Assembly: GCF_910592395.1 (NCBI RefSeq)
Contig: NC_088311.1
Location: forward strand, 18,106,501 to 18,170,500
Origin: Lineus longissimus
Taxonomy: Eukaryota; Nemertea; Pilidiophora; Heteronemertea; Lineidae
Reading direction: 5' to 3'
DNA: 64,000 bases
Shown: in pieces, positions 28,127 to 57,164 of the stretch
Position numbering within the stretch: position 1 is the stretch's first letter
Layout: the number at the start of each line of letters is the position of its first letter
Translations under genes and position numbers: made by a program
Notes under the pieces: generated by a model
What the model saw: only the letters and a program-made list of their open reading frames with translations
Database searches by the model: none
Told to the model about the DNA's origin: nothing

Positions 28127-28187
28127 ATGAGACAGTTTCTCCATTTGATTATTTTCTGGAGTGTTCTTTTTTCTGATATCTTAGCAG
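28127..28187 (+). CDS. gene B exon 1, signal peptide
   Basis: MRQFLHLIIFWSVLFSDILA then G|GTAGGC, phase 1. Same length and start triplets as 22858 and 60050. Hydrophobic core and small residues before the splice point fit a cleavable signal. Confidence 0.8.
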
Positions 28188-31100
28188 GTAGGCAAACTGG
28201 AAACACGTATTTGTCGTTCGATTCTGTGCTTACTCGATTTTGTTTCAGGCGAGCAGCAGTTCTTGCAGATTACGCGATTCTTTGCCTTTAATCACATTAC
28301 CACATGTCCTCCGCGCTGTAGGGAGTTTTCGCAGAGCTAGAGCCCGAAACGCCAACGCGATCTCTTTGTTCGAGCTCCTGATCAGGATGCCGAACAAAAG
28401 GGTAGGCGTTCGCGTTGGTGTTTTGGGGGATTTGCGAAAACTCTATACTAAGCTACAAAAGGTCTGTCGTGTCGTCAAAAATGTGCTAATCGATTTCGTG
28501 AACCAAGCTGTAACGTTGTATGGGAAGAGGGGGGGGGGGGGGCATTTTTTAAATAGTATTGTTCTGGTACTAACGACTGTCCCTAGAAACCTCTGGCAGT
28601 GAAATTGTGAGCCGGGAGTGTCCTATGATCGCCTGCTAAAGTCTGACACCCTTCGATAAAATAGCGACAACGACAACGGCACATAATGTTCCTTCACACC
28701 AAAAAAGTACCGAGTCCCTTTATTTCTGGGCGGGAAGATGAGCATTTTTTCCAGGTATATGATAGCAAGAAATGAAAACATTTGTAAATAGCAAATACAA
28801 AAATGTTTTGATACAGTATTCGCAGCCCGATGAAAATGGATAAGACGATAGAGTTAGTACATGTACGTACATGTATATTATTAAGAGTATTACTATAATT
28901 ATTGGCACATTTAATATTACTACATTTACATAAGGTGCATTATATGCGCCGTGAAATCATCATTTACAAAAATCAAATCAATAATTTACCGAGTTGGATA
29001 TGTTTAATGTGATGTCGATTAGCCGTTAAGTTGAGTGAAGTTGACTCGAATTTGGAGAGTGTCAGTCTAGCGGTTTCTAGAAATTACATGACTGTATAGA
29101 CAATGACGTTTCTCTGATCTCTGGGCAGAATTGTCTCGTGACAAACGTGTACATGTACCCGAATGCTGAAATTGAATGATTTATTTATTAGTTCTTGATG
29201 TTATCCATAGCTTCACATGTTCACCGAGACGACCGCGTCCATCTTGAAGACAAAGAGGCAAAGTCGTTCCTCGTTGAACACCCCGGCAGGTATCGGCGGG
29301 GACTAAGCTGGCTTGAACAGCCAGGCGGCATAGATTTAAACGAAGAGTGTCGAGAAGGCTGCAAATACGGAGACTTAGCGAAACATGGGATAAAGACAAA
29401 GGAAGAAGTTGTAAGTGATCGTAAGTTAGGAAGTAGCCGTACTACAATGTATTTGTCTCCATAAAATGAGACCATTGTGGGTAAAGGACAGCGTAAGTAA
29501 TATACATGGTATAGCCTGCGGTTAGGCCTGGTACACTACCATATCATTTGGAACAGTTTTATGCAAATGGTGTCACGGTGCTGCATCTGAGTCATGTTGT
29601 TGCCTGGTGACGGTGTATGGAACCACAGGGCATACAGCATATTTTTGCACCAAACTTTAATATTGCAGCAATCTGACCCGGCATCCTGAACCTCAGACCA
29701 ACAATCAGCACTAAGGATCCAGCTTATAAGCAGTAACGTGTGCGCGAGGGGAGGAGGATACGACTGACTCTGGATTTTCGAGGATGAACTTACTGATGCT
29801 AGACGATGTTTTGAAACAATCTTTATTTTGTGTTGTACATGTAGCAGGCTCTGCAACCATTAGTTCTATGCCTACTAGTAATTGCATTTGGACAGTTTGA
29901 TTTCTTTCTCTTGAACGATTTCTTTTGAACGATTTATCATTTCAGCTGGACTTCATGAAAGAATACAATTGCAAACAAAGATTATTACCATGTCCTTATG
30001 GTCAAGCGTGTGTGGCGACAAATGCAGACACGTCCAAAAATACCAACCTACACGTAGACTGTTCTGGTAGGTCGCTCACCACTCTGCCTGTGATCATAGC
30101 ATAAAACCTCACCACAATGATCATAGCATAAAACCTGCTCTTTCGAGAAGACACAATTTGCATTAATTTAAACAACTTTACTCCATTACCGAATTAAAAT
30201 CTAAGCAATCTGATTTTATAGCTCCTTTAAATTATAACATCGAACCTACAGTCTGCTGATATTTTGCAGATTGAATCATCTTACCACAACCCCTTATTGA
30301 AATAATACTCATAGTGGTAACAACTTCAGGTGGATACTTCATATTTTGCCAATATTGGATGACATGATTGAGTCATAGCGAATCATAGCGAATCGAAATG
30401 AAAAACCCTTTAATAGAAGTTCTTAAAAATCTCAAAAATCATTTACTGCAGGTTTTCATTTTACTGGAAAACCGCTACAGGGTGCATATTGGTGTTGGCC
30501 ATTAAACCATTAAAAGGTTTTCAAAAGCGCAAAAACCTTTATTTCTAAAAGTGTTCTCTAGGCCTTCCCATACACTGGTAACATGTCGGCACCCTTCGCA
30601 CAGCCGAGCACGAGGCAAGACCACCATTGATTTTTTAAGCCTTTTAGCAGTTCAATTGTCAATGTTTGACCGCGACGCATCAAATACTGCGTGGGGTTGT
30701 GAATCTGAAATTTTGATATGATATTCCGGACAGTCGGGCAAGTAAATGGTGAAAAGTAAACTGGTAGTTGACCATGGAAATTTTTTGATAATCGACAAAT
30801 TAGACATACATTGATATTTCCACTCTTTTCAGCCAACTGGCAGAAAAATCTCAAAATACGCCCCCTATTACCAAATTAGCAAAATTCGAAATTAATTTTT
30901 TCATCAAATAATGTCTTTATATCTGTAGACTTGCCACAGCAAATATTTTTTCAATACCTCCCCAAATATGTACTTGTGAGTTAAAAACATGCACTCGTCT
31001 AATTGATAGGCCTGGACCCTCCAACCTAGGAAGATTCAATGGTGGTATTGTCTCGCACTGCTCAACTGTTCTGTCTGAAGTCCTTTTACCACGCATTTTC

Positions 31101-34100
31101 AGCTTTAATCCCTTGTTTCCAGCGGGAGATGCGTATGTCGCACGATTTCAACAGAAAGGGGCCTCTCAGTCTCAAATCAAACTCCTTTTTTCTTGGGTGA
31201 TTTGCGTTTTTCACAGGATTTCCATCGACACGCCATTCCTTGTACGACTATATAGAAACCTATTTTCTGGCCATGGTGTCCTCTCGGTTTCTCAAGAAAC
31301 GGATTTTAGTCAGTCAATCACCTAATTATGTTTCATGCATCGTCAATAGGCCCTATTTGATGCTAACGACCTGGCAAATTTAACTGATCGAACTCAAAAA
31401 TAGTTTGGTGTCAGGGTGTCTTGCGTCTGGGCTGCATCTCACACCCATGCCACCGAAGATAAACAGGGTGGTCCAAAAAAATGTGCAATGTTAATTGCCA
31501 TAATGTCTACCAATAAATATTGTATTTCTGCCAGTGGTTGGATAGTGTTTATAGACGATCATATTAACAGTGAAAAATATTCTCGTCAACTCCAATTACC
31601 TCATTTTTTAATAATTATTTAAATGTTCGATTTTCAGAATCTTCATTTTCCCACACTTTTTGACGTTCTCATATTCAGTGTCGATGCACATCACAGTTTG
31701 AATTGGCATGAAAATAAGACAAAAACAATGAGGTTTATGGTATCAGCAAAGTATCATGGGCATGTGCAAGCACCACTGAGTGATAACATACATGTAAATA
31801 TGAAGTGTGCAATTGGATAGAGAAATATATCTGGTTCATTATTGCATCGCCGGAACATGCGAGAAAAGTTAGAGGAAATGGACATTCTAAAAATCAAACA
31901 CGTTACGAAGAAACATGTCTTTTAAACATGTGAGGAAAAAAGGTGGACTTAAAAACGATTCACCGTCATAATGTTTAACATCAGTGAGGCACCCTAACCC
32001 CGGCAGAAAAATCTTAGCAGACTGACAACATTTGTAGAAAAATTACGGCAAATTATAAATACGCACTTTTTTGGACGACCCTACAAGACCCGAAATCGGA
32101 ACTAGTGACCATGGAGTAATAGGCGTATACAGTTTGAGTAGTTGATGGTATTTGAAACAAAGCAGACCCTTAGCCGGACTTCTTTTTACATTCTGAAATC
32201 GTGTCATGTTGAACTCTGTTTTCAGATATAGTTTGCATGAAACAGCTTCCTCTCGAAAACGGTGAGGTTTCTGTATCGAAATTGACCATCGATGGTACGG
32301 CGAAGTACTCGTGCAAAAAAGGTTATGCTCTAAAAGGAGCATCCAATGCCACGTGTGAAATAAGCGGCGAAATGGGGAAATGGTCAGCTGATAGACCCCA
32401 ATGTCAAGGTAGGTAAAGCTGCCAATAAAATAGAGAGACTAGAGATGTTCCGATTTGGATCGCAGAACAAGAACGAGAACAAGGTGATGTTTTCTCTAGT
32501 AGACGACATCAAGTTGTTTCTAGACATAGGCCGGCCTACCCGACATTAAAGGAACGCTCTTTCATTGTATGTCTGCCGAGAGGCAACGCGATATCCGTTG
32601 TCAAATGCGGTATCGTTCTCGTTCTCATTCTCGGGTCAAAATCTGATCCTCTCTAATTAAACCATAGGCCAACGTGAAACGAAATCTACATCTAGTCCCC
32701 TTCATAAAGGTTATCAGCTCCACATACACGAATCTAGGTAATAAAGGTACAGGAAAAAAAGGTACAGGAAAAAAAGGTACGGAAATAAAGGTACAGGAAA
32801 TAAAGGTACAGGGAATAAAAGTACTGGAAATAAAGGTACCGGAAAAAAATGTACTGGAAAAATAGGTACAGAAAATGACATAAATAGGTAAAAAAGGTAC
32901 ACAATATTTTTTTTAAATATCATTTGAATTCTCTCTCTTTCTATTCATAACATTTAACTTGATTTGTTGCGAAGGCATTGCATAGGCCTTAGAAATAGGT
33001 ACATGTATATCAAATTTCCAGTTTACCGTTATGGTTTTCAATAGTGAAAACACGGCTATCAAGATCATGATGACTGTAAAGATTATAGGACAATTCCCTC
33101 TGCAAAAGGGTTAACTGATAAATGTACCAATGTTCAAGTTAAATTGCAATTGATCAATTAACATTCATCATAGAGCTGGATCCAATTAACAATGTACCTG
33201 GCCAATTAGGTCTTAACAGACAAATTACTAGATTTAAGACCAAACACAAGCTATTTAGGGAAACTGGCGAGAATCTTTAGTGACATGCCAGGTAGGATGC
33301 CAGGTGCGCCTCCCTTTCCCAAGACCCTGGATCCGCCCCTAATAAGAATACGACTCGAGTATTTTAAAATTTAAGAGAACATGAATGTAGTTACTGTCTT
33401 TTCATCGATAAACCACCGGTTCCTAATATTCAGGCCAAACCCACCTTATGATGGTACGTAGTAGAGGATCACAATACACGCATGGTAACGACCAATAGCA
33501 GTAGACTGTCAACTTGGAAGGCAGGCCTAGGTTTTAGAGGGGCTGCTGTATGTTTCGCAGGTGACCTAATAGGGTTGCGTCATTTGTACGGACGAGTGCC
33601 GCGGCGGAATAATACGGGGTGTCCCACAAAATACTCCACCGGTTTTTACAGGATGTTTAATTTCAAAATTTGAGTACCTTAAAAAGCGTAAAAAAGGCAT
33701 ATCAAGGCTTGTTTGCTAAGTGTAATGGATGATTGAAAGGAACTTCGAACAACATTGGGTGATATGAATAAAGACAAGCAAATGCTTTTATCTAAATCTC
33801 CATGTACATTTACACTAGGCCTTCCTGTACAAAACCGGAGTAAAAGCATTTGCTAGTATTTATTCATATCACCCAATGTCTGGTCCATAGTTTGGAATCC
33901 GGGAGAATTACTTTAGCATTTTAGTTGGGACAACACGTAGGCCTAAAAGGGCGAAAACTATTGAGTAATCAGTGAGGTTTCAGGCGTATATAAAGTTTGG
34001 GTACTGTCGGAAACCTCTTCTTGCCTTGCCTACAACTTGTAGAAATATGGATGAGCCACTGCCTAAAAGAAAGCGTAGTTATTCCGTGTCGGAGAAGCTG

Positions 34101-37100
34101 CGATACATGCGATACTTTGAGGTAGCCATTGGAAATGGCACTGTGCGAACGATGACAGAATTTGCCAACCACCACAACATACCTTTTGAGACGTTTCGCA
34201 GGTGGAACCGTCATGACCTGGAATTGAGGAGAAGCAGAACCGGGGCAAAGACCCGCGAAAGGTGAAGCAGAGGTTGATTGGTTACTGGCCTGAGGTCGAA
34301 GACCAACTAGAAATTTGGTTCCGGGATGTTCGGCGAAGACGTCTACCTGTTGTGATCCAGGATCCAGGAGAAGGCCGTGCAACTATTCCACACCTGGTGG
34401 GATGCCCTCCCAGGCCGGAGAGCGCCGACAACTCGCCACAGAAGCAAAACCACTAATGCATGATTTCCATGCATCCAACGGCTGGGTGGAACTTTTTATG
34501 AAGAGGAAGGACATCAGCCTGCGAAAAGTCACGAAGAACACTACCACCATTCCAGAAAATGCCGTTGTCCTGGTTCGAAACTTTCGCGATGAAATAACCA
34601 ACACCATCGAAATTGTTGGTATACGAATGCGCCTGTTCTTCAACATGGACCAAACTTTCCTCCTTTTTGACCTCCGCCTAATGTACACCCTCAATGAGAA
34701 AGGTGCCAAGGCTGTTGATGTACGAACCTCCAGGAAGAATGCAAAGCTTTGATGTTCTGTTACACTTTGCGTGGCGGCAAATGGCGATAAGATGCGAGCC
34801 CACATCACCTTTCCGAGAAGAGGATTTGTTCGCGCGCTTCGAGCTCTGGAAGAGGCCGAGTTGCCCGAAAACGTTGTGGTCACATCGTCCGCCACGGGAT
34901 GGGTCAGACAGGAGACGAGTCACTATTGGCTTGACGAAATCTTCATCCCATACGACCATGAGGCCCATGCTGAACATTTCATACTTTTGGTAGATCAGTT
35001 CAGAGTACATCGAACGGAGAACTTCAGGAATCGTCTCACTGCAGAAGGGGGCAGACTCAACTTTGTACCGGCCGGATGCACATCGTTGGCACAACCCCTG
35101 GATGTGGCTGTCATGAGATCCTTCAAATGTCACGCCAGACAAGCATGGAAGTCATGGAAGACCGAAAACACCAACGAAGCAGGCCAGTGTGATCCAATTG
35201 GACTCAGAGATGTTGTCAACATCGTCAGCCGTGCCTTGGAAGCGATCAGCCCAGAGGTCGTCGAGCATGGATTTGAGAAAGCGTTACGCCCACAGAACAT
35301 AGACGCAGGTCCACACCCAGTTCCAGATGACGACGATGACGACGAACAGGGGGTAGAATTCCTCAATCTGCCTGATGAGTTTGAGCCTGAGATATAGCAG
35401 GGCAGTAAGCAATCGGGTCAACAGAGAAAATCGACAACCGGACCAGAATAAAAATCCAAAATAATGCATAAAAAACAAAACAGAAATGAGAAATAAAAAA
35501 TAAAAACAATGAATAAAGGCAAAAAAAGATGAATAAAGATTGGATGAAAGCCAACCTGAATAAACCTGAATGCATGAAGCATCGCTGTCTTGAAGCGATG
35601 CTGGTAGAGCCCCCAAAAGGCCTGTGATGCCCACTCAAACGAGTTTTATGTGAGAAAGGGTTAACGTTGATCTATCAAACAGACCCAAACCGCAAAACCG
35701 CACTGAAACCGCAAACTCAGACCGCAAACCACAATAAACGCGAGCGCTTTGCATATCCTATGTGTCTCGTTAGGCCAATCTGTCATTCTGCTAGTAATAC
35801 ACCTACTTCATTCAACTTTCGACCAATGAGTGAAATGGTATTGTGCCCTGTGCTCGTGGTAGGCGCATGCATTAATCCTAATGAACCGGTCTTACATCGA
35901 TGAAAAGACGGTATTACCAAAAAAACGTCAGCTCCCCTGTTGGGCATTTTCTTCAAAGAATTTTCCTCAAATTCATTCCGTAACAAAATTGTCCGCAATG
36001 TATTAAACTATTTTAAGGCACCACCTTAGTCACAGAAGAAAAAAATGGGCAAGAAAAGATTAAGACATAGGCCGAGTCTGAACCAGTTGAAGAGAATGAT
36101 ATTTAAAAAAAATATTGTGTACCTTTTTTCAGGCACCTTTTTTTCCGGTACCTTTATTTCCAGTACTTTTATTTCCTGTACTTTTATTTCCTGTACCTTT
36201 ATTTCCGTACCTTTTTTTCCTGTACCTTTTTTACCGTATACCCACATACACACATAGATAATGATTTTGGGCAATTTAAGAAAATTAGCACACCGTTTAT
36301 CACATGATGACATGTAAAATAACCGGCTTGTTTAAGCAAGTGTCTTGGCCACGTATTGAACAAACTAGTAGAGACTATCATGATCTGTATAGATGAGATA
36401 ACAGCCTTTTTTCAAATAACCCTATATGATAGGAAAACTTATCCAATGATACAGTGTTCCGGGGAAAATCCGAGGTAATTGAAGGTTATTTGTCTGTATA
36501 AAACAATGCCTCCCGTCACATTACAAGAAGGAAGGACGATACTTTTTAAAACAATTATTTTACGACCGCTACATCGATGTAAAAGTTCGAAATGTCCTAG
36601 GGCAGAATGTCCTCGGAACAGAGGATTCTATCATGTGCTTTATTCTCTGAGGCATCGTCTCCACAGAACTACATGTATATACCATTATCTGAATATAGGA
36701 CCGGACACTTTTTCCAATTGAACACTTCCGACTGCTACGCCGGCCCTAAACGCAACCTAGTATAACATGATTCCCGGTTTACGTTTGTCGCTTGCGCCCA
36801 GGGTCTTAACCTCTCTATTAACATGACTGAGCCTAATATTTACTAAGTATAATATCGTTGTGTGTTGATGTTTTTTTCATTTCCGGTGTCTGTGAAATAC
36901 GTGTCAATTTTCGCACCCTTTTTTCACAGGTGTAATCTTTGCCAAAGCAAATGTCGTAAATCTAATTAGGTGGAACAATTAAGGTCAATAAAATCTCGTC
37001 CGATAAACGAACCTCGAGTACTTTGTCAGTGAACTATCATCTTGTAGACTGTTTTGATTTATTGTCTAGATTAATGTCTAGATCAATTCATATCTTCAGC

Positions 37101-40100
37101 CGTGGTCCGTCAGCGACCCAACTTGGCGAATTGACAGGTATCCGCCCAAAATCCAACACTCCCCGATCCTGTCGTGAGATACCTATATGTAGGCCTGAGG
37201 TACGCCTAATGCACACTACATGTACGTTATTGACATCCTCGAATACCAGAGTCAGTCGTTTGCTCCACCCCTTGGTCACGTTACTGACCCTGGAGTAACT
37301 GATGGATAATTTCGGGATGAGGCGGACAAATCCACTCTGCCCAATCAAAACGGCTCTTACATCTTTCCTTGAAAACAAACGCGCTCTCAGAGACAAGACC
37401 ACAATTGATTTTTTAAGCCTTTTAGCAGTTAAATTGTCAATGTTTGACCGCGACGCATCAAAGAACGCGTGGTGTTGTGAATCTGAAATTTAGATTATGT
37501 TATTCCGGACAGTCGGGCAAGTAAATGGTGAAAAATAAAATGGTGATTGACCACGGAAATTTTTTTTTAATCGACAAATTAGACAGACTTTGATATTTCC
37601 ACTCTTTTCAGCCAACTGGCAGAAAAAACTCAAAACACGCCCCCTATTACCCAATTAGCAAAATTCGAAATTAATTTTTTCATCAAATAATTTCTTTATA
37701 TCTGTAGACTTGCCACAACAAATATTTTTTCAATACCTCTCCAAATATGTACTTGAGAGTAAAAAACATGCACTCGTCTAATAGATAGGCCTGGACCCTC
37801 CAACCTATGAATATTCATTAGTGGTCTTGTCTCAATGAAGGTACATTTCAGGGGTTAACATTTTGAGATTTTTTTCAAACTAATGTACATGACATCCCAC
37901 AACTCTCCAACAAAGGAAAGTCATATCTGGACATTTTTGGAGAAATGAGAGACATTTCAAAGAGTGGTACAACTGTGCCAAAGCGACGAAAGAGGACAAA
38001 ATCGACAAAAAGTCATGATTTTGCACCCAACAGCACCAAATTCAAAGACCTGCCCTGGCCAGAATAAGCAAGCTATGGAGCTGAAACTTTAGGACGTGAT
38101 TTAGGAATATCTTTGCTGCTTAGGGCACAACTTTCAGAATCAAGGCCTAAGTAGTTTCAAAGAAATTACAAAATGAATGGCAACACAACAAGACTTGTAA
38201 AAATGAAACCGAACTTAGACCGGGGTTAGGTTGACTCTTATTTGGGTCAAATTAAGTTTTTTTCTCATTATTTTAGCTTGTTTTGACCTTAAATCATCAG
38301 CAATACAATATTCTAAATGAATTAGAGTGATTTGAGCACATTCAAATTTTTCACTATATTGACCCAAAATGTAGTGTAAATAGAGACAAGACCACAATTG
38401 ATTTTTTAAGCCTTTTAGCAGTTAAATTGTCAATGTTTGACCGCGACGCATCAAAGAACGCGTGGTGTTGTGAATCTGAAATTTAGATTATGTTATTCCG
38501 GACAGTCGGGCAAGTAAATGGTGAAAAATAAAATGGTGATTGACCACGGAAATTTTTTTTTAATCGACAAATTAGACAGACTTTGATATTTCCACTCTTT
38601 TCAGCCAACTGGCAGAAAAAACTCAAAACACGCCCCCTATTACCCAATTAGCAAAATTCGAAATTAATTTTTTCATCAAATAATTTCTTTATATCTGTAG
38701 ACTTGCCACAACAAATATTTTTTCAATACCTCTCCAAATATGTACTTGAGAGTAAAAAACATGCACTCGTCTAATAGATAGGCCTGGACCCTCCAACCTA
38801 TGAATATTCATTAGTGGTCTTGTCTCCTCAATCTCGAATGCATGGGCCGCGAACTTGTTGTTACACGATCTTTTAAGAAGCATCTATCTAACCCCCCTCC
38901 CGCAATCGCCGAAAAACGTCGATAAATACCACAAAACAACAAAATATATAGTCAGTGCCTATCAAAGCAAGGAATGGATTGAATATACCTTATTGAGTAA
39001 CGAGAAAGCAGTTTGTTTAATTATCATCGAACAGCGTTGGTGTTGTGGTATTAGAGAGCAGCCGGCGATCCCACTTCAAGCCTGAGTGTAGGTTTATTGA
39101 GGGCATAAACTCGGTCATCAGTGCCGAGTGTTGCACTGAAGTTCATGATGCATTATAGAACACCAAAACGTATTCATAGCCGAAGATCCTGCGTTGACAA
39201 AATTCTGTACGGACAACGCAAATAAAATCGTTTAGAATTAGGCCCCCGGCAGCGGCCAATCAGCTCCACCCGTGGGGCCTAATAGTATCTGGCTAATGAA
39301 GACCCCGGCGCTGTAATGTATTTATTATGTCATTATTGTGACGCCCGTGCGTAGACCGGTGCTTTTAGGACACGCAAAATATGTAGCTTTTCGGAGGATG
39401 GCGAGACTATCCCAGCGCAGCGTTCCCTTTTTCTAGGGATGTGCATCAAAACCTGACAAGTAACAATGCCTTTATGGTCAGAGCCAACGCCTGTTTGCAA
39501 GAGTGAGTCCAATGGCTAACGCACACGATTGGTCAATTGCCATCCCATGCACCCATTATAAACATTTAATTTCTTTGTGGTTTGAAGGAATTTTGAGATG
39601 GTTCTTAATGTTGTGTTGTATTCTTCTTTTCTTTTCTAGCTATTACCTGTGAACCCCCTGTCATATCAAACGGACATGTATCAGTCACCAAAGCAGCCGT
39701 GTATGGGTCAATTGTAACCTATCATTGTAACCAAGGCTTTGTTCTGGATGGGAAACGGAGCTCAAAGTGTAGTCAAAATGGAACTGACAATGTTTATGGG
39801 AAATGGACTAACCAGTCGCCTGTGTGTAAAGGTACAGTTCCTCCAGAGAGAAAGCTTTCCTCATTTCCTTTCTACATTTCCCCCATGTTTGGCTTTGACC
39901 ATTATCATCGATACAATCCAGTACTTTGATTCCTTTCCGAGCCATAAGTTGCGATACACCATTATTACTTAATGGACAAGTAATAGCGGGTGGTCGAAGT
40001 ACCCATGGCACGACAGTGAGCTTTAGATGCGACGAAGGCTTCATTCTCGTAGGAAAGACCAATTCTACGTGTATTCATGAAGATCCAAACAGCGCCAAGG

Positions 40101-49100: not shown

Positions 49101-52100
49101 GGGTACGTACAGCCAGCTCCCCCGGTCTGTACATCTTGATTGTAGTATAGACTATCACACAATGTACACGTGCATGTACACAATGCATTGTAACTGTAAC
49201 TGTTGTTGTTGTCGTTGCTGGTGTTCGTTTCCGCCTAGACCGCTAAGCCTCCACAGGGGTAATAAAGGCCTCTAGGTTGTTTGAGGGAGTGTGTGGGAGG
49301 GGCAAGGGAGAGGGGGGTTCACTAACATCTAAAAATGTAATTTTATTTGGAAAGCATGTGTATTTCGTCAGTTATCTGAGGGAATGGGCAAAAAATGGGC
49401 ACCAGTGAGAAGGGCACGACTCGACCCCCTCACCGGAAAACCGTAAGGGCGGCCGGATTTTTTTCTTCTTAAAAAACAGCATTCTGACTTCCTTACCTGG
49501 AAGTGGCATCACCTAAAAAACTGCAGTGTTGGAGCTAAAGGAGAGTTAAAATTGCCTTTTTACTGAAATTTGAGATTGCATTGTTTTTGGGACGTACTGT
49601 ACCTGTCATTAAAATGTACCTGGGGCAAAACAAAAGGCATGAAAAGGTAGCTCAGATCATGTACTTTCAATTTCAATAGGCGGTGTTTAGTGATAATTCT
49701 GTTTGATGCACGAAAATTGACAAAAGACTTAGCCTATTTTGAGGGAAAATGCATGTTTTTTTAAAAGGAAATTGAGTAGGAAATGGTTAACAGCCGTACA
49801 CCAAAACTGTGGGGTTATTTTCGAAACCAATCCACCAGCCTTCATAGTACCCTAGGACAGGTCTGTGGTAGAAATTACAACTAGATCTGTTGACCCCCCA
49901 CCTTGCCACCATTTGCATGATCCTGCATGGTGGTATCATGGACTGACACTTAATTTGTTTTTGGTTTGAAGGAATTTTGAGATGGTCCTTAATGTTGTGT
50001 TGTATTCTTCATTTCTCTTCTAGCTATTACCTGTGAACCTCCTGTCATATCAAACGGATATGTATCAGTCACCAAAGCAGCCGTGTATGGGTCAACTGTA
50101 ACCTATCATTGTAACCAAGGCTTTGTTCTCGATGGGAAAGGAAGCTTCAAGTGTAGTCAAAATGGAACTGACAATGTGTATGGGAAATGGACTGACCAAA
50201 CGCCTGTGTGTAAAGGTAAAGTTCCTCCAGAGAGAAAGCTTTCTCATTTCCTTTCTACATTTCTCCCATTTTCGGCCATGATCATTATCATTATCGATAC
50301 AATCCCGTACTTTGATTCTTTTTCCAGCCATCAGTTGCGACACACCATTATTACTGAATGGACAAGTAATAGCGGGTGGTCAAAGTACCCATGGCACGAC
50401 AGTGAGCTTTAGATGCGACGAAGGCTTCATTCTCGTAGGAAAGACAAATTCTACGTGTGTTCATGAAGATCCAAACAGCGCCAAGGGAAAGTGGTCAGAG
50501 CCAACGCCTGTTTGCAAGGGTAAGTCCAATGGCTACCGCACACGATTGGTCAATTGCCATCCCATGCACCTATAATAAACATTTAATTTGTTTGTGTTTT
50601 GAAGGAATTTTGAGATGGTCCTTAATGTTGTGTTGTATTCTTCTTTTCTTTTCTAGCTATCACCTGTGAACCTCCTGTCATGTCAAACGGATATGTATCA
50701 GTCATCAAAGCAGCCGTGTATGGGTCAACTGTAACCTATCATTGTAACCAAGGCTTTGTTCTGGATGGGAAAGGAAGCTCCAAGTGTAGTCAAAATGGAA
50801 CTGACAATGTGTATGGGAAATGGACTGACCAAACGCCTGTGTGTAAAGGTAAAGTTCCTCCAGAGAGAAAGCTTTCTCATTTCCTTTCTACATTTCCCCC
50901 ATTTTCGGCCATGATCATTATCATTATCGATACAATCTCGTACTTTGATTCTTTTTCCAGCCATCAGTTGCGACACACCATTATTACTGAATGGACAAGT
51001 AATAGCGGGTGGTCAAAGTACCCATGGCACGACAGTGATCTTTAGATGCGACGAAGGCTTCATTCTCGTAGGAAAGACAAATTCTACGTGTGTTCATGAA
51101 GATCCAAACAGCGCCAAGGGAAAGTGGTCAGAGCCAACGCCTGTTTGCAAGAGTAAGTCCAATGGCTAACGCACACGATTGGTCAATTTCCTTCCCATGC
51201 ACCCATAATAAACATTTAATTTACTAGCATATACCCATGGAGCGGGCAAAGTTGAAATGTAATATACATTAGTTAAATGGGCACGATGATTGAGCTGCAT
51301 TAAATTTCTAACGTTACTGAAGTTTTATTAAAGGTTAAACACGAAATGAACTGCATTTAGGGACTTATTGCTGCTATCTACATGCAACCCCCAATAGATT
51401 GATTGGAGTACGCTATTTTGCACAATGCATTGAGAATAGTGACAGCAGGTCCTGTTCCAAATAAGGCCCTCACATGTCAGGCATATCACCTACCCACTCC
51501 CGTACCGAATGCCACTGTCGGACCAAAGCCAGGCGCATGGAGAGATGCAGAACGCAATTCAAACTGACAACATCAGTCAGTAAAGAATAAAACAAAGAGC
51601 AAGCGCTGGCCACTGTACATATTTTGTCCATCCTGGCATAACTGTTTATTGATACACTGACTGCATGTTCCGGTAGGCCACTCTGCAGAATTTGCCTCAT
51701 CACTCAGGTCAGTGTTTCTCGAATAGAACTAAAATAGAATAGGCTAATCATTAATCTCCCTGCTAATACCCTGCACCATGGACCAGGTTGTATAGCACTA
51801 CATACGTGCTGGAAGCTGATACTGATGTGGCAGGGAGAATATGCGTGAAGTTTGTGTATGCTTTTGAGAATGAGCGGAGCTCTCCAGTCGACGTGCTCTC
51901 TGAAAAGTTGTTATTTATTCTAAAACCACGAAGATATTCGACGTATGACACCCTCAGTGACACTCTTACGTATGATCCAGACCTACGAAGCCAAAGGTTG
52001 CAAGAATTCGACGCATTTCCGAGGCCCAATTTTGAAACAAAAATCGCCTCCTATTTAGCGGCCACAACGCGCATTATAGTATAGATTTGCGGTTTGAAGG

Positions 52101-55100
52101 AATTTTGAGATGGTCCTTAATGTTGTGTTGTATTCTTCTTTTCTTTTCTAGCTATTACCTGTGAACCTCCTGTCATATCAAACGGATATGTATCAGTCAT
52201 CAAACCAGCCGTGTATGGGTCAACTGTAACCTATTATTGTAACCAAGGCTTTGTTCTGGATGGGAAAGGAAGCTCCAAGTGTAGTCAAAATGGAACTGAC
52301 AATGTGTATGGGAAATGGACTGACCAGTTGCCTGTGTGTAAAGGTAAAGTTCTTCCAGAGAGAAAGCTTTCCTAATTTCCTTTCTACATTTCCCCCATGT
52401 TTGGCCTTGATCATTATCTTTATCGATACAATCCCGTACTTTGAATCATTTTCCAGCCATACGTTGCGACACACCTATCTTACTGAATGGACCAGTAGCA
52501 GCGAGTGAGCTAAGTACCCATGGCACCACAGTGAGGTTTAGATGCTATGAAGGCTTCATTCTCGAAGGAAAGACAAATTCTACGTGTGTTCACGAAGATC
52601 CAAACAGCGCGAAGGGAAAGTGGTCAGAGCCAGCGCCTGTTTGCAAAGGTAAAACCAATGCTTATTGTACACGATCAGCAGGTTTTCGAGGGCAGTTGAA
52701 GTTCTGGTAGCATTTACTTGCGTCTCCCTATGGAAGTGGTCATATCTGCAAAATATATGTTCGTGTTTTAAATGTTTATTATTTACAGCAGCAACATGTG
52801 AGACGCTGGTAACTAGTGCGCACATTCGCTGCAAGATGAGCAAGCGGATGGGGACCAACATGAAACAGTTGACGCTTAATAGTTCTTGTGTGACTTAAAT
52901 GAGATCGAAGCACGATGTTATTAAATTCATTCAGCCCATTTTTTCGTAGGCAATAAGGAAACGGTCATGGTCACATCTTTTTGTGCGACCAAGCGACATA
53001 TTCTCTCATACAATGTCCGCGATTAAGAAAGCGTTTGACCCTTAAAGGCTCTGATTGTGGGCTGCGGACAGGACGTCGAAAAGTACCAAAGGCCTTGGGG
53101 GTCGGGGACGTAAATGTGTTTATGGACCCACATGTGAGTATGGACCCAGCACATTGCCCTCACCAAAGAAATATACTTGGAGCACCTACCCACGATCTAT
53201 AATTCCTATTAAACATTCGCTTCTATTCTACTCTCAAGAAATTACCTGTGACCAACCCGTTCTACAGAATGGTAAAGCATCCACTGGTTCCCTACAATAT
53301 AATTCAACAGTAACATACAGCTGCGAGGATAACTATTCTCTTACTGGGAAGGCAACGTCCACTTGCGTCCAGGAGGATAAGACTAGCATCAAGGGTGTGT
53401 GGGCAGATCCAATACCGATTTGCACAGGTGAGAACCTTTTGGCAGGTTCCGATATAAGTTTTCTTCGTCTCCGAAGTCGTGATTTGTTGGTGTATTTAAC
53501 ATGTCTTCTGTTGGTTATCAGAAATAAGCAAGGCGCAGCACAGTAAATAGAAGCTTAAGCGCGATCTTAATTGGCGTATAGAGCATTTCTACGTGTTTAC
53601 ACGCGTCAGTAGCTCTGTCCAAATCATATTCAGTGCATCATTTACTTATTAGGAATATATCAAATTTAATTTCAAATTTTAATTTTGAACGAACTAAGTT
53701 GACCTCAATCTGCAAGACTTTCTGAAGCACGGTAATACTAGTGTAATCACATTTTCCATTACAAGTCTTGTGCTTTAATAATCACTATCGGGAGAGCTCG
53801 CGGCCATTCACAGAATATGGCAGTGTTCAGTAAAACTTAAGTCGAATATTAGTAAAAGAGCGACAACTTCCATTGGTTTTGCCCTATACGTACATGCGTA
53901 TGCCTTCTTTGATCCTTACAAAATGCGATTTGATTGACCAAAAAATCCAAGGTCAACTCAATTTGATTTGATTCACAGAAATTGGATTGGAGTCACCTTC
54001 GTCGACATTGAATTACGTTCACGGAGACGTGGGAGGACGCACAAGTACGCGTGATGAATCAGGTAAGTTGGGATCGTGAAAAAAAATTAAGAATGAGTGA
54101 TTATAGACTTCACTGAGCAATTAAATGGAAAATATTGCGTATTATATACAACTAGCATTGTACCCGTAGCGCAGGCAGGTTCAAATGGGCTATGCCTTGA
54201 ATAGATTGAAGTGCAATGAAAATCTAATGTCGGCCTCCAAATGGCTCTAAAATGGCTCTAAAATGCGTGCTCCTCCTACATGTAGCGAGGTCTCGGGCAA
54301 GGCACTTACTCGACAGGCAAGCTAGAAGTTCAGCACCGTGAGCAGCTCCTTGATAAGGCCATGCCAAGTTCAGAGTGCCTCTTCAGATACATCAAGTATT
54401 GAAAGCTGTGGTGAGCACATAAACAAACCATGGTAACCTTCATTTGAAAATCCCTTCATAATCAAGGGCTAGCTCTGGCTAACACAGCACCCATAGACAA
54501 TAGCCCACCAATTTGACCCCAGCTCCTTACTACGGGAAAACCCAAGTCAAGCAACCAAAAGTACCAAAAATACATTTTTGTTTACATTTGAACTGGACAC
54601 CTACGTTTGTTTACAATTTCTTTCCCCGCGAAATCTCGAAGATCAGGTGACCTGCAATCGTGGATTAAAAATAACATTAACCTTGGTTCAGCAGGTCAAC
54701 AGGTACAGACTGTCCCAATCATCCCCCTACAGCCAGCCGTTCAATAGGTTGTGTTAGTCACCCCACAGGGAGTGCAGGTTACTGATTAGTCCCCTGCATA
54801 ACTAAACAGCAATGGCTTGGCTTCTGTGAGTGGTAAGGAGAATTGACAGTGTCCGATTAAAAATCCCTCATTACTGCTCCGCTGAAGTAAATTTCCGAAA
54901 ATAAACATAACGTTGCATCAGGATAACATATCACCTGCAAACGTCCAAAATTTCGAGACGAATCACTACCCCCTAATGGCACTTTATCGAGCCGCCTTAT
55001 AGTATTATGATATAGATTACTGGCAAGAATGATAATCTCAGACGCATCCCTCTATATAACCCCGTCACTTGTTACATCATCAGTAACTTGTGCTTGCCAT

Positions 55101-57164
55101 TCTCAAGTGCTGACACAAATGAGGTAAAATGCGAATTTCGAGTTCCTTCTACACAGTGCGATTTGAAGGTTTCCGCATCGGTCGAATATAAAGTAATGCA
55201 AAATAAGAAAAGCTAGGTTTTTCATTGTGTGTTCCTTTCACAATTCCCGAGCGTGCAAATAGAGAATATTTCTGCTAACTCGGTCATGACCACATTTGCC
55301 CTTGCTGCGTGCATGTATACGGTGACCATTTCTAAACCTCTCTATTAAATTTGTTTACATGAGTTTTTTTTACACATAAATAATTTAAAACCTCTCTCTT
55401 GGTGTCTTCTTTGTTATCTCTATTTCAGTATCAGCAATGAACATCGGAATTGGTATTGGCTGCGCGACAGTGGTTCTCGTCTTGGTAATCACTGGTATTA
55501 TTTTGGCAATTAAAAACAAAAGGTACGTTATTCCCATTTTCCAAATTATACCAACTGGAGGTATACAATGCATGCAGTACACGATAGATTCGGAAAGAGC
55601 CAACCGGATTATTGTGGTTTTTACATGTCGGTGCCAAGTTCAGCTTGACTGGAGTCTGAGGTTTCCCATTCTATCTGAACTTCGCTTGAGGCAAAACTAG
55701 TGCATGTACTTCTGAATCGATGAATCTGTCATCCAGTCTAAAATAACCTAACATAACACCATAACATGACGATTTCAAAGGGCGCCTTTCAATGTGTAAA
55801 TGTGTTCAAAGGAGCAATCCCTCAAATCGTTTCTCAGTCAGCCATGTCTTTAGCGAGTGCTTAAACGAAATGATACTGTTTGCCATCCTTATATGGGTCG
55901 GCAGCTGGTTCCAAACCAAAGAAATGGACCACTCGCCGAAATGGTTCTGTCCCAAATGAGGTCTTCGTGCGCTTTGGTTGCAACTTGAAGCAGACAAAAG
56001 CGGTTGACCTTGAACGACGAACAGATTCGGCGAGGGGAAGCAGTTGGAAACCATGCCGACCAATGAACACCCCTATTAGCATAGGTAGCAAAACTTTGAA
56101 AACCATACGAGTCATATCCGGCAGCCGGTGGAGTTAAAATAAGTCCTTATGTAAAATTGCCCACAAGAGTTCATGAAGAATTAAAATGTGATTAACTAAT
56201 AAGTGCAGTAAATACATTGTAAGGTCCTTCGCTATACACCCAGTAGTGTTGTTTACTGCGTTGCCATGAATGATAACACGGATATGATAATGAGCTCCTG
56301 GCAGGCTAATGTATGAATGAGTTCAGCTCTCCATCTTGGTCAAAAAAGTCGCTGTATGGGAAGCCGGGTTTGCCGAATAATCAATTCCTGTTATGTTTCG
56401 ACCCTCAGCTCAGACAAGGAAAGGGTATCATACCTCACTTTAGATTAAATAATAATAATAATAAAAATAATAGGTATTGGATCAGGATAGTACAAGGGTG
56501 AAAGAACAATTTAGTTGGTGTGTACTACTCATCACTTCTGGTATTATATGGGTGAGTTAAGCTGTTAGAAAATGAAAGAGTGCCGATCAGGGAGATCTGA
56601 TCATATCGGGGCAGTGGCAAGAAGCCACCAATGAAAAAGTGCAAAATGTGATAATAGCGTAAAAGTCTATTAAGAAGTTTGCCTGCTTTAAGTTCGGCCT
56701 TCAGCCCTAATGACTTGTTTCGATGAGAATCCCAGGTTATTTAAAACGTGAGGTCAAATCTCAATTCTTCCATTCTGTCAAATATTGTACCTAAAATGTT
56801 CGCACCTGTGAAGTGGACCAAATATCTTGCAGTTTTTCCAATAAAAAAACCAAAAAATATGGCAATATTTATTTTCGCGAATCAAGCTTATTCGCAAAAT
56901 TCGGCGGACAGGGCCTGAATCGTGGTGTTAAACGATAAGAGAGGTTTTTTTTGTCAAACTATCCATACATGTACATTTTGTTTGTCTTGTCTGATATTTT
57001 CCAGGCGAGAAAGCCCACCACATGAAACACTCGAAGAAGAGCCCCCTGCCAAATCCAAAGAAAAGGTCTTCCAGAATCCACTTTACAATATAGAGGAATG
57101 GAACGAAGGACAAAACGAAACAAGGGGCAGTTCTGATGAGACGTTCCGCCTAGATGTTGTTTGA
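28127..57164 (+). CDS. gene B: Gla-like / CCP-array / transmembrane receptor, exons listed separately
   Basis: Appears complete. Order: signal peptide (28127), propeptide with RYRR site and divergent Gla-like domain (29211), short Cys exon (29946), one divergent CCP (32226), CCP-a/b array of eleven pairs (39640-51152), terminal CCP-a and CCP-b (52152, 52457), optional stop exon (52792), last CCP (53239), stalk (53979), TM helix (55429), NPLY tail (57005). That is 26 CCP modules on a type I membrane protein. Introns 1 to 3 are phase 1, 0, 1 and all later module boundaries phase 1. Large introns are filled by a pogo-like transposon, 444-bp TIR repeats, a TTAA element and two Helitrons. Gla domains bind phospholipid through calcium after vitamin K-dependent carboxylation; whether this divergent one does is unknown. 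Confidence 0.75.
29211..29410 (+). CDS. gene B exon 2, propeptide and Gla-like domain
   Basis: Starts after CCATAG in the phase left by exon 1 and ends EEV before GTAAGT, phase 0. VHLEDKEAKSFL resembles the carboxylase-recognition helix of vertebrate Gla propeptides (hydrophobic-L-acidic, then conserved A and L). RYRR is a furin-type site. After it comes GLSWLEQPGGIDLNEECREG and CKYGDL, parallel to the L..G.L..EC.E..C pattern of Gla domains, with Cx3C instead of Cx4C. The recognition helix is about four residues further from the cleavage site than in vertebrates. Call rests on pattern plus intron phases, not on a database hit. Confidence 0.6.
29946..30066 (+). CDS. gene B exon 3, aromatic/Cys linker
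   Basis: Enters phase 0, leaves phase 1. LDFMKEYNCKQRLLPCPYGQ with four Cys in all. LDFMKEY occupies the place of the aromatic stack that follows vertebrate Gla domains and is likewise on its own exon. The Cys part matches no module I recognise. Acceptor ATCATTTCAG, donor GTAGGT. Confidence 0.65.
30612..31054. mobile_element. 443-bp TIR element, diverged copy
   Basis: Begins GAGGCAAGACCAC and ends GTGGTATTGTCTC; interior colinear with 37390-37833. No coding capacity. Confidence 0.75.
31055..32225. other. intron 3 remainder of gene B
   Basis: Apart from the repeat at 30612-31054 I see no exon, RNA gene or clear element; short frames are not conserved elsewhere in the window. Confidence 0.4.
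32226..32408 (+). CDS. gene B first CCP exon
   Basis: 183 bp: VCMKQLPLENGEVSVSK, YSCKKGYALKG, CEISGEMGKWSADRPQC. All four Cys and the Trp present, low similarity to the array. Acceptor TGTTTTCAG, donor GTAGGT. Confidence 0.83.
32745..32900. repeat. GGTACAGGAAATAAA-type minisatellite (left transposon end)
   Basis: Roughly ten imperfect units; the reverse complement occurs at 36120-36236. Confidence 0.85.
33752..33880. repeat. hairpin-forming inverted repeat
   Basis: Arms of about 39 bases (33752-33790 and 33842-33880, e.g. AAGCAAATGCTTTTA against TAAAAGCATTTGCT) around a loop of about 50 bases. Confidence 0.75.
34047..35397 (+). pseudogene. pogo/Tigger-like DDE transposase, frameshifted
   Basis: Reads in pieces. 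34047-34265 starts MDEPLPKRKRSYSVSEKLR and has an N-terminal helix-turn-helix (VRTMTEFANHHNIPFETFRR). About 34262-34330 gives WFRDVRRRRLPV of a CENP-B/Tc5-type domain. About 34444-34740 gives FHASNGWVELFMKRKDISLR and the first catalytic D in NMDQT. 34771-35397 gives the second D in LVDQFRVH and the third in GCTSLAQPLDV, then an acidic tail. At least three frame changes make it inactive. Confidence 0.8.
37390..37833. mobile_element. 444-bp TIR element, copy 1 of a direct pair
   Basis: Ends GAGACAAGACCAC and GTGGTCTTGTCTC form 13-bp inverted repeats. By eye identical to 38383-38826. Non-coding. Confidence 0.85.
38383..38826. mobile_element. 444-bp TIR element, copy 2 of a direct pair
   Basis: Direct repeat of 37390-37833 after 549 bases of unrelated AT-rich DNA. 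CTCA precedes copy 1 and follows copy 2, a possible duplication of the target by the whole pair. Confidence 0.85.
39108..39470. repeat. 365-bp repeat shared with 6667-7033
   Basis: Same orientation as the left copy. It ends abruptly at a fragment of a CCP-b exon, a recombination joint. Confidence 0.75.
39474..39510 (+). pseudogene. 3' fragment of a CCP-b exon
   Basis: TGGTCAGAGCCAACGCCTGT and TTGCAAG then AGTGAGTCC: only the last codons and a mutated donor of an array unit remain, left of a normal type a intron. Confidence 0.75.
39640..39831 (+). CDS. gene B CCP-a exon, pair 1
   Basis: GHVSVTKAAVYGSIVTYHC, DGKRSSKCSQNG, TNQSPVC. Donor is GTACAG rather than GTAAAG. Confidence 0.85.
39942..40133 (+). 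CDS. gene B CCP-b exon, pair 1
   Basis: CDTPLLLNGQVIAGGRS, FRCDEGFILVG, CIHEDPNSAKG. Acceptor CCTTTCCGAG, donor GTAAGT. Confidence 0.87.
40271..40462 (+). CDS. gene B CCP-a exon, pair 2
   Basis: Begins VITCEPPVISNG, TVIYHC, NAYGKWTDQTPVC. Confidence 0.87.
40575..40766 (+). CDS. gene B CCP-b exon, pair 2
   Basis: VIAGGQS, FRCDEGFILVG, CVHDDPNSAKG. Acceptor TTTTTCCAG. Confidence 0.87.
40904..41095 (+). CDS. gene B CCP-a exon, pair 3
   Basis: VITCEPPVISNG, VSVTKEAVYG, TDQSPVC. Confidence 0.87.
41208..41399 (+). CDS. gene B CCP-b exon, pair 3
   Basis: CDTPLILNGQVIAGGQITHG, VSIRCDEG, HEDPSSAKG. Acceptor TTTCCAAG. Confidence 0.87.
41537..41728 (+). CDS. gene B CCP-a exon, pair 4
   Basis: HVSVTEAVVYG, DNIYGKWTNQSPVC. 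Confidence 0.87.
41841..42032 (+). CDS. gene B CCP-b exon, pair 4
   Basis: Consensus gene-B module except SEPTHVC. Confidence 0.87.
42168..42359 (+). CDS. gene B CCP-a exon, pair 5
   Basis: GYVSVTKAAVYG, WTGQTPVC. Confidence 0.87.
42472..42663 (+). CDS. gene B CCP-b exon, pair 5
   Basis: CDTPLLFNG, CVHKDPNSAKG, SELTPVC. Confidence 0.87.
42801..42992 (+). CDS. gene B CCP-a exon, pair 6
   Basis: SSKCSENGTDNVYG, TDQTPVC. Confidence 0.87.
43106..43297 (+). CDS. gene B CCP-b exon, pair 6
   Basis: CNTQLLLNGQVIAGDQS, NSANGKWSEPTPVC; the CNTQ start recalls the gene A type b modules. Confidence 0.87.
43435..43626 (+). CDS. gene B CCP-a exon, pair 7
   Basis: NGTDIVYGKW; acceptor TCTATTCTAG. Confidence 0.87.
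43739..43930 (+). CDS. gene B CCP-b exon, pair 7
   Basis: Consensus gene-B type b protein; acceptor TTTTTCCAG. Confidence 0.87.
44068..44259 (+). CDS. gene B CCP-a exon, pair 8
   Basis: GNVSVNKAAVYG, TDQTPVC. Confidence 0.87.
44373..44564 (+). CDS. gene B CCP-b exon, pair 8
   Basis: IRCNTQLLLNGQVIAGGQS. Confidence 0.87.
44702..44893 (+). CDS. gene B CCP-a exon, pair 9
   Basis: GYVSVTKAAVYG, CSQNG, TDQTPVC. Confidence 0.87.
45007..45198 (+). CDS. gene B CCP-b exon, pair 9
   Basis: CNTQLLLNG, NSTCFHEDP; donor weakened to GTAATT. Confidence 0.84.
45266..49949. mobile_element. 4.7-kb TTAA-flanked DNA transposon
   Basis: Bounded by TTAA at 45262-45265 and 49950-49953, splitting an array intron that normally reads ACATTTAATTTG. 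Terminal inverted repeats start GTGTCAGTCCATGATACCAC and match for 26 bases, then imperfectly to about 55 (GGTGGCAAGGTGGGGG). TTAA targets are used by piggyBac and Kolobok superfamilies. No full transposase is seen, so it is probably non-autonomous. A frame from about 47225 to 47608 (ERCIVECEQCICNQW ... RRRLVEQRKRQQ) and a minus frame 48744-48316 are unidentified. Confidence 0.8.
48655..49147. repeat. long inverted repeat inside the TTAA element
   Basis: Arms of about 125 bases, 48655-48782 and 49019-49147 (AATCAAGATGTACAGACCGG against CCGGTCTGTACATCTTGATT), nearly perfect, spaced by about 240 bases. Confidence 0.85.
50024..50215 (+). CDS. gene B CCP-a exon, pair 10
   Basis: DGKGSFKCSQNG; first module right of the TTAA element, still about 633-bp spaced from the next. 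Confidence 0.87.
50328..50519 (+). CDS. gene B CCP-b exon, pair 10
   Basis: Consensus gene-B type b protein. Confidence 0.87.
50657..50848 (+). CDS. gene B CCP-a exon, pair 11
   Basis: CEPPVMSNGYVSVIKAAVYG, TDQTPVC. Confidence 0.87.
50961..51152 (+). CDS. gene B CCP-b exon, pair 11
   Basis: TVIFRCDEGFILVG. Last exon base is A, giving A|GTAAGT where all others have G|GT. Confidence 0.85.
51224..52085 (-). mobile_element. non-autonomous Helitron, family 2
   Basis: Minus strand begins TCTATACTATAATGCGCG and ends GGGTATATGCTAG, inserted between A and T of an array intron (units elsewhere read TAATTTGTTTG). 862 bp. A frame at 51788-52084 covers much of it but shows no Helitron protein motif. 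Confidence 0.75.
52152..52343 (+). CDS. gene B terminal CCP-a exon
   Basis: VSVIKPAVYGSTVTYYC, TDQLPVC. Confidence 0.87.
52457..52648 (+). CDS. gene B terminal CCP-b exon
   Basis: IRCDTPILLNGPVAASELS, FRCYEGFILEG, SEPAPVC; paralogue of 14648-14839, from where the two loci are continuously alignable. Confidence 0.87.
52792..52898 (+). CDS. gene B alternative terminal exon (stop-containing)
   Basis: ATCETLVTSAHIRCKMSKRM ... LNSSCVT and TAA. The acceptor is a NAGNAG (ACAGCAG), so an extra codon is possible. Conserved with 14981-15087. Confidence 0.5.
53239..53427 (+). CDS. gene B last CCP exon
   Basis: ITCDQPVLQNGKASTGSL, VTYSCEDNYSLTG, GVWADPIPICTG. Two residues differ from the gene A copy. 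Confidence 0.87.
53979..54062 (+). CDS. gene B stalk exon
   Basis: 84 bp, IGLESPSSTLNYVHGDVGG then RTSTRDES; T/S for one N of gene A. Acceptor ATTCACAG, donor GTAAGT. Confidence 0.75.
54152..55016 (-). mobile_element. Helitron family 1, internally deleted copy
   Basis: Same site and orientation as 16355-17424, lacking about 220 bases matching 16440-16660. Shared by descent through the segmental duplication. Confidence 0.8.
55429..55522 (+). CDS. gene B transmembrane exon
   Basis: 94 bp, VSAMNIGIGIGCATVVLVLV then ITGIILAIKNKR; one residue (T for I) differs from gene A. Confidence 0.85.
57005..57164 (+). CDS. gene B cytoplasmic tail exon and stop
   Basis: RESPPHETLEEEPPAKSK, VFQNPLYNIEEW, then GSSDETFRLDVV and TGA. 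Compared with gene A the frame is extended at the end. NPLY is conserved exactly. Confidence 0.85.

What the first reader, a model, noticed from the sequence alone, without database searches (positions are those of the whole stretch)
28127..57164. Gla-like domain joined to a 26-module CCP array, a TM helix and an NPxY tail
Seen: signal peptide; VHLEDKEAKSFL; RYRR; LNEECREG and CKY; LDFMKEY; then CCPs, TM and NPLY. Intron phases 1, 0, 1 and the separate exon for the aromatic stretch match vertebrate Gla genes. Known: vertebrate membrane Gla proteins (PRRG/TMG family) have no CCPs, and CCP receptors have no Gla domain. Inference: a calcium/phospholipid-anchoring, possibly apoptotic-cell or microbe-binding receptor with internalisation tail. 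Cx3C spacing and the shifted propeptide are weak points.
Basis: partly seen in the sequence, partly recalled or inferred. Interest (0 to 1): 0.88.

Follow-up and report, generated by a model that had tools for sequence, protein, structure and literature searches.

The report
Worm receptor with decayed Gla cap
A ribbon worm carries a cluster of cell-surface receptor genes in which a decayed copy of the calcium-binding Gla module, best known from blood-clotting proteins, sits on the tip of a long complement-receptor-like stalk, a combination we did not find in any other protein examined.

Summary
Exons from 28127 to 57164 splice into one open frame of 1899 aa: signal peptide, Gla-like propeptide and domain, a 4-Cys exon, 26 CCPs, linker, TM helix and FxNPxY tail. 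The genome is taken to be Lineus longissimus, a ribbon worm. Gla ancestry is supported although Pfam misses this copy: a Gla profile made without these genes ranks the Gla-like exons of five paralogues first to fifth among 10,901 ORF fragments; hhalign probability is 93.7% and 0 of 300 shuffles reach the score. Seven such exons and eleven tail exons were found genome-wide, all in one cluster; at least one sibling gene carries an EGF-type cap instead. Calcium/phospholipid binding is not supported for this copy: Glu at 4 of 12 canonical Gla positions, none at 26, 27 or 30, a Cx3C loop, and no Phe-16. Matches to the carboxylase and VKOR families and two intact Gla domains lie elsewhere in the genome. 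Best reading: a CR1-like endocytic receptor with a repurposed Gla cap. No transcript, protein or structure evidence was available.

The parts
28127..28187 (+). exon 1: start codon and signal peptide MRQFLHLIIFWSVLFSDILA, ends phase 1
   Evidence: same exon in paralogues A (100%), C (95%), F (95%), and over 15 of 20 residues in E
29211..29410 (+). exon 2: propeptide-like segment (HLEDKEAKSFL), RYRR furin-type site, Gla-like domain with CREGC loop; phase 1 to 0
   Evidence: 7 copies found genome-wide
29946..30066 (+). exon 3: aromatic-stack-like LDFMKEY plus a 4-Cys segment; phase 0 to 1
32226..32408 (+). CCP 1 (first Sushi exon), phase 1-1
39640..45198 (+). CCPs 2-19: nine alternating pairs of two module types, 18 exons, phase 1-1
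50024..53427 (+). CCPs 20-26: three alternating pairs plus the last, distinct CCP; 7 exons
53979..54062 (+). linker exon EIGLESPSSTLNYVHGDVGGRTSTRDES
   Evidence: same exon in paralogues A, C, E, F and a diverged one in D
55429..55522 (+). transmembrane exon VSAMNIGIGIGCATVVLVLVITGIILAIKNK(R)
   Evidence: (hydropathy)
57005..57164 (+). cytoplasmic tail exon with VFQNPLYNIEEW (FxNPxY) and stop codon
   Evidence: 11 tail exons found in the genome, all in this cluster
8333..20950 (+). 3' part of tandem paralogue A: CCP array, linker at 16181, TM at 17839, tail at 20801; its Gla-like head lies upstream of the window (exon 2 and 3 at C4:18084287-18085151)
22858..22917 (+). orphan second-type signal-peptide exon (MRQVFYLIIVWNAIFSNIVA) between genes A and B; no EGF exon found between it and gene B at E <= 0.01
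60050..61916 (+). second-type signal-peptide exon (60050-60109) and EGF-like exon (61785-61916) between genes B and C, probably a remnant of an EGF-capped gene (its acceptor reads aaag|t where D and G read aag|gt)

Best explanation
This is one intact member (gene B) of a tandem cluster of about eleven receptor genes in Lineus longissimus, judged by eleven tail exons. The members read so far have a long CCP stalk like vertebrate complement receptors CR1/CR2, a TM helix and an NPxY-type tail. Seven heads in the cluster derive from a Gla module (propeptide, furin-type site, Gla domain, aromatic stack). Proposed working: the signal peptide sends it to the secretory pathway; the propeptide-like segment is cut off at RYRR, leaving the Gla-like segment as the membrane-distal tip; the repeated CCP pairs bind an opsonin such as C3 fragments, or another surface ligand, at many sites; the NPLY motif draws the bound cargo into clathrin-coated vesicles. 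In gene B the cap has probably lost canonical Gla chemistry and serves as a fast-changing recognition tip. Shown: gene structure, domain content, Gla homology, paralogue cluster, loss of Glu positions. Inferred: cleavage, ligand, endocytosis, loss of calcium binding.
For: Single open frame of 32 exons. Gla homology by two profile tests with shuffles. Exon 2 runs from phase 1 to 0 and ends where this genome's two intact Gla exons end (...ERT|GTAAGC, read), followed by an aromatic stretch LDFMKEY. Five of five heads examined (seven in the genome) keep RYRR, A-10, L-6 and both Cys. Nearest solved chains to the CCP profile are CR1 and CR2. 26 of 26 Sushi. Tail motif VFQN[PS]LY in 5 of 5 Gla-capped genes examined, NP kept in 4 of 5. 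Lineus ruber has two C3 genes, four factor B genes and six CCP-repeat TM proteins in its transcriptome (PMC9835746, passages seen); this genome has 19 TED_complement matches. Leader half of exon 2 dN/dS 0.32, mature half 0.82.
Against: No transcript, protein or structure data. TED_complement also matches other thioester proteins and rings in 4 of 14 control genomes, so C3 itself was not shown here. No ligand evidence of any kind. Introns of 2.2 and 7.2 kb, holding repeat and transposase-like sequence, separate exon 3, CCP 1 and the main array. The divergence of the mature half is not significant evidence of positive selection: none of ten pairs gives P < 0.05 (smallest 0.058). Copy A alone reaches only 20.5% hhalign probability.
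Confidence: 0.62

Rival explanations
1. The cap is a working Gla domain: the worm's carboxylase docks on the propeptide-like segment, modifies the remaining Glu residues, and the cap binds calcium and phosphatidylserine on dying cells or microbes.
For: Four matches to PF05090 (HTTM, the carboxylase family) at C1:257-262 kb and one VKOR match on C2; two intact Gla domains elsewhere in the genome with Glu at 11 of 11 alignable positions; propeptide half conserved, dN/dS 0.32; paralogues C and E keep Glu 26, 27 and 30.
Against: Gene B keeps 4 of 12 positions and none of 26, 27, 30; five of five heads have Cx3C instead of Cx4C and His at -16 instead of Phe, and four or five extra residues between L-6 and the cleavage site compared with factor IX. 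The role of F-16 is recalled, not tested. Three of the four PF05090 matches and the VKOR match hold in-frame stops, as expected where a match runs into an intron but not resolved; PF05090 and VKOR also ring in 3 of 14 control genomes each.
Confidence: 0.2
2. The cap is a passenger: an ancestral Gla-type pro-segment retained for secretion or folding while all binding is done by the CCP array.
For: Propeptide half conserved and mature half nearly unconstrained, dN/dS 0.82; a sibling with an EGF-type cap and the same kind of stalk and tail exists (gene D).
Against: NEECRE, the CxxxC loop and the four Cys of exon 3 are kept in 5 of 5 heads examined; none of the seven heads has a stop in exon 2.
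Confidence: 0.13
3. Exons 1-3 belong to a separate small secreted Gla-like gene next to a CCP gene.
For: No RNA evidence seen; CCP 1 is 2.2 kb downstream and the main array 7.2 kb further.
Against: Exon 3 ends in a phase-1 donor with no stop, matching the phase-1 acceptor of CCP 1; the order head-CCP1-linker-TM-tail recurs in five paralogues; the deposited model P0004 joins exon 2, exon 3, CCP 1 and further CCPs of gene E, though its first 22 residues look mispredicted and it has no TM or tail.
Confidence: 0.04
4. The Gla resemblance is chance or convergence.
For: Pfam Gla misses copies A and B and scores C at 0.021 and E (P0004) at 0.36, below the curated cut-off; no PDB Gla chain found with exon 2 of B or C; a genome search with exon 2 of B returned only the seven cluster copies, not the intact Gla domains on C3.
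Against: matching intron position and phases.
Confidence: 0.03

Closest known systems
Gla domains of vertebrate coagulation factors (factor IX, X, prothrombin, protein S)
   Same: Propeptide with A-10 and L-6, dibasic cleavage site, Gla core around L..EC..E.C and, in C and E, EE.RE; aromatic stretch on the next exon. Intron phases 1 and 0 as in this genome's intact Gla exons; that vertebrate genes share them is recalled
   Different: Most Gla positions lost, Cx3C loop, His for Phe-16, no EGF/kringle/protease part; CCP stalk instead; membrane anchored
PRRG/TMG transmembrane Gla proteins (PRRG2, PDB 9bvp, seen as an alignment)
   Same: Single-pass membrane protein with an N-terminal Gla-type module; propeptide VFLGPPEAQSFL resembles VHLEDKEAKSFL
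   Different: PRRG proteins are short, without CCPs and with PY motifs in the tail (recalled); here 26 CCPs and FxNPxY
Complement receptors CR1 (CD35) and CR2 (CD21)
   Same: Long all-CCP stalk with long repeats, single TM, short tail; nearest solved CCP sequences
   Different: No Gla-type cap in CR1/CR2 and a 7-CCP repeat unit in CR1 (recalled); here the unit is 2 CCPs; orthology not shown
Lineus ruber CR1-CR6 proteins (PMC9835746, passages seen)
   Same: Same genus; multiple CCP repeats and a TM domain, called putative complement receptors
   Different: The paper's main text does not contain the words Gla or vitamin K; the sequences were not compared here
Gla/EGF-repeat locus on C3 of this genome
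   Same: Propeptide plus Gla exons with the same phases; intact Gla cores
   Different: Followed by a long EGF-repeat series; no CCP seen among the Cys-rich fragments of the 16 kb listed

Membership tests
Gla domain family (PF00594 sense) | Sequence homology to the Gla module | tested here: met
   Custom profile and profile-profile tests. The Pfam curated cut-off was not reached by any of the four heads scanned (A, B, C, E as P0004)
Gla domain family (PF00594 sense) | Clustered Glu at the canonical carboxylation positions | tested here: not met
   B 4, A 5, C 6, E 6, F 3 of 12; this genome's two intact Gla domains 11 of 11 alignable
Gla domain family (PF00594 sense) | Cx4C disulfide loop | tested here: not met
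   Cx3C in 5 of 5 heads
Gla domain family (PF00594 sense) | Propeptide recognition residues F-16, A-10, L-6 | tested here: inconclusive
   A and L kept, F replaced by H in 5 of 5; the motif definition is recalled
Gla domain family (PF00594 sense) | Gamma-carboxylated Glu in the mature protein | not testable with these tools
   needs mass spectrometry; a carboxylase-family match is present
PRRG/TMG family | Gla module directly above a TM helix, no other domains, PY-motif tail (definition recalled) | tested here: not met
   26 CCPs between; tail has NPLY and no PPxY (sequence)
CR1/CR2-type complement receptors | Ectodomain of many CCPs with one TM and a short tail | tested here: met
   the extra Gla-like cap is outside this definition
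CR1/CR2-type complement receptors | Binds C3/C4 fragments | not testable with these tools
   no ligand data
CR1/CR2-type complement receptors | Orthology to vertebrate RCA genes | not tested
   no tree was made; sequence similarity only

The most novel reading that the evidence does not exclude
A lophotrochozoan receptor cluster in which interchangeable caps, a Gla-derived one in seven genes and a two-EGF type in one or more, are mounted on one CR1-like CCP stalk, and in which the Gla module has been freed from carboxylation and turned into a diversifying recognition tip while its propeptide is preserved.
Probability: 0.4. Interest if true: 0.75.

Novelty: new variant of a known kind. Interest (0 to 1): 0.6.

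Why it matters
Gla domains are known mainly from vertebrate proteins, and Gla residues from cone-snail venom peptides (the latter stated in PMC12112360, passages seen). A protostome worm with intact Gla domains, a carboxylase-family match and an expanded set of decayed Gla caps on complement-receptor-like stalks would show that the module was recruited into putative immune receptors. It also gives a natural series (intact on C3, half kept in C and E, mostly lost in A, B, F) for asking which residues a Gla fold needs once carboxylation is relaxed.

Tried and rejected
Pfam on the window's head: only Sushi above cut-off. PDB sequence search with exon 2 of B: one unrelated match (1z67, E 0.1); with exon 2 of C: none at E <= 10. 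Idea that exon 3 is half an EGF domain: rejected, its score of 10.5 is below the best of 100 Cys-fixed shuffles (18.2). Idea of positive selection on the mature cap: not significant in any of ten pairs. Search for heads outside Lineus: 1 hit of 31 candidates, itself Lineus; 0 hits of 12 candidates. Search for Gla+CCP proteins: 28 hits of 50 candidates, 28 of 28 with PF00594 and 0 of 28 with PF00084; this covers only proteins of about 470-1490 aa that share words with one query. Literature: eight paper searches; no title or abstract start in the listings describes a Gla-CCP protein, and the direct three-term search holds 0 papers; only open-licence papers are held. Passages on Gla and sushi domains in PMC3927609 did not bear on it. 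Structure prediction: machine busy, then switched off, so no structure and no fold search.

Full report
What the sequence is. The window is C4:18106501-18170500 of a 391,118,348-base genome in 30 contigs. A deposited protein found with the head of gene B, P0004, is named as from Lineus (the name is cut off) and lies on a contig of 25,598,605 bases, against 25,594,645 for C4. Its exon 2, exon 3 and CCP 1 letters are identical to gene E on C4. The published genome of the bootlace worm Lineus longissimus is 391 Mb, mostly in 19 chromosomes (PMC8593623, abstract and passages seen). I take the species as L. longissimus, phylum Nemertea.

The gene. Exons 28127-28187, 29211-29410, 29946-30066, 32226-32408, 25 further CCP exons from 39640 to 53427, then 53979-54062, 55429-55522 and 57005-57164 have AG/GT borders at every intron. 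They give one frame of 1899 aa with only the terminal stop. The CCP exons are phase 1-1. The 26 CCPs are one distinct module, 12 alternating pairs of two module types, and one distinct last module; 26 of 26 match Pfam Sushi. By profile the nearest solved chains are CR1 and CR2. The most hydrophobic stretch of the protein is the TM exon, and the tail holds the only NPxY, in VFQNPLY.

Is it Gla? Pfam Gla does not report copies A or B at E <= 10; copy C gives 0.021 and P0004 (gene E) 0.36, all below the curated cut-off, and a Pfam Gla search of the whole genome finds only two places, both on C3. I built a reference of 29 sequences: 26 Gla stretches from the proteins (those with names are vertebrate; five of the 28 hits have none), this genome's two intact Gla domains, and PRRG2; none is from the cluster. 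Searched against 10,901 stop-to-stop fragments of both strands of 324 kb, it ranks exon 2 of genes E, C, F, B and A first to fifth (E 4.1e-6, 1.3e-5, 0.017, 0.029, 0.1); the next fragment has 3.3. Taken singly, F, B and A are thus weak. Five heads against the reference by hhalign give probability 93.7%, P 2e-7, score 40.3; 300 column shuffles reach at most 23.2. An earlier test with three heads and five references gave 83.6% and score 32.6 against at most 18.8 in two sets of 300 shuffles; there the propeptide half alone gave 21.3% and the mature part alone 16.8%, and copies A, B, C alone 20.5, 67.7 and 78.1%. The exon structure agrees: exon 2 runs from phase 1 to phase 0, as do the two intact Gla exons on C3 by my reading, which end ...ERT|GTAAGC where the head ends ...EEV|GTAAGT, and the next exon opens with LDFMKEY where Gla proteins have .EFWK.Y. 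I conclude that the head descends from a Gla module.

Does it still work as Gla? At the 12 Gla positions of factor IX-type domains the Glu count is B 4, A 5, C 6, E 6, F 3, against 11 of 11 alignable in both C3 domains. B has lost 26, 27 and 30; C and E keep them. Five of five heads have CxxxC, His in place of Phe at -16, conserved Ala -10 and Leu -6, and four or five extra residues before the RYRR site compared with factor IX. Counts depend on the alignment, which places the loop gap just after the first Cys. The genome has four PF05090 (HTTM, carboxylase family) matches within 5 kb on C1, three of them with an in-frame TAA, and one VKOR match on C2 with four in-frame stops; matches that run into introns would look like this, and I did not build these genes. 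So the chemistry is probably available in the animal, but copy B looks a poor substrate on paper.

The cluster. The Gla-like exon was found 7 times in the genome, all on the plus strand of C4 between 18,084,290 and 18,370,959, and the tail exon 11 times between 18,127,301 and 18,432,425; the tool calls such counts lower bounds. In the 324 kb that I read, genes A, B, C, F and E have signal peptide (E over 15 of 20 residues), head, exon 3, CCP 1, linker, TM and tail in the same order. D has a different signal peptide, two EGF-like exons in phase, CCPs, linker, TM and tail; G begins the same way but was not read to its end. Remnants of the EGF type lie between genes, two of them in this window. 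Gene F has a stop in CCP 1 and gene C a stop in one CCP exon; B has none. P0004 is an outside annotation that joins exon 2, exon 3, CCP 1 and more CCPs in gene E; its first 22 residues resemble the EGF-like exon read in another frame, and it has no TM or tail.

Evolution. Pooled over ten pairs of five copies, dN/dS is 0.32 for the leader half of exon 2, 0.82 for the mature half, 1.30 for exon 3, 0.75 for CCP 1 and 0.91 for the tail. Pairs are not independent, and no single pair shows a significant excess in the mature half. Synonymous divergence of the mature half (pS 0.34) is far above that of the other stretches measured (0.05-0.14), and the heads fall in two kinds (A, B, F and C, E), which fits old head types kept apart while the rest of the genes was homogenised; this is inference.

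Function. Lineus ruber has two C3 genes, four factor B genes and six proteins of CCP repeats with a TM domain, called putative complement receptors, and C3-1 rises after Vibrio exposure (PMC9835746, abstract and passages seen). The main text of that paper does not contain the words Gla or vitamin K. This genome has 19 matches to the thioester domain family, a family also found in non-complement proteins and in 4 of 14 control genomes. The most economical reading is an endocytic CR1-like receptor with a repurposed Gla cap. Ligand, cleavage and endocytosis are inferred.

Novelty. 0 of 28 Gla proteins returned carry PF00084, two head searches found nothing outside Lineus, and eight paper searches list no Gla-CCP protein (see Tried and rejected). 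Both parts are known kinds; the combination, the decay series and the interchange of caps appear new within these searches. Hence 'new variant of a known kind'.

Noticed in passing
G000:C3:2350375-2364092 (L013:5375 to L030:9092): A locus with a weak DSL match (E 0.0033, under cut-off), two intact propeptide-Gla exons (E 1e-15, 3e-14) and a third partial one (E 0.0067, under cut-off), then a long series of EGF repeats and a VWC-like stretch (under cut-off): possibly a Notch-ligand-like protein with Gla domains in a protostome. Whether the exons form one gene was not settled.
   Followed up: partly
C4:18193260-18216120 and C4:18286851 onward: Sibling genes D and (beginning only) G with a different signal peptide and two EGF-like exons instead of the Gla-like head; D has the same kind of CCP/TM/NPxY body.
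   Followed up: partly
window 798-5141 (-): Open frames that look by eye like an LTR (gypsy-like) retroelement, with zinc-knuckle, reverse-transcriptase and integrase-like translations, upstream of paralogue A's array.
   Followed up: no
window 33969-35397 (+): Open frames resembling a DDE (pogo/Tigger-like) transposase inside the intron between CCP 1 and the main array, judged by eye only.
   Followed up: no
window 39475-45265 and 9629-14866: Both CCP arrays are built from a unit of about 633 bases holding two CCP exons; self-matches of the arrays are about 88-97% identical, so unit number may vary between individuals.
   Followed up: partly
C4:18229879-18230061 and L009:5145-5309: In-frame stops in CCP 1 of gene F and in one CCP exon of gene C; such exons are phase 1-1, so exon skipping would keep the frame.
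   Followed up: no
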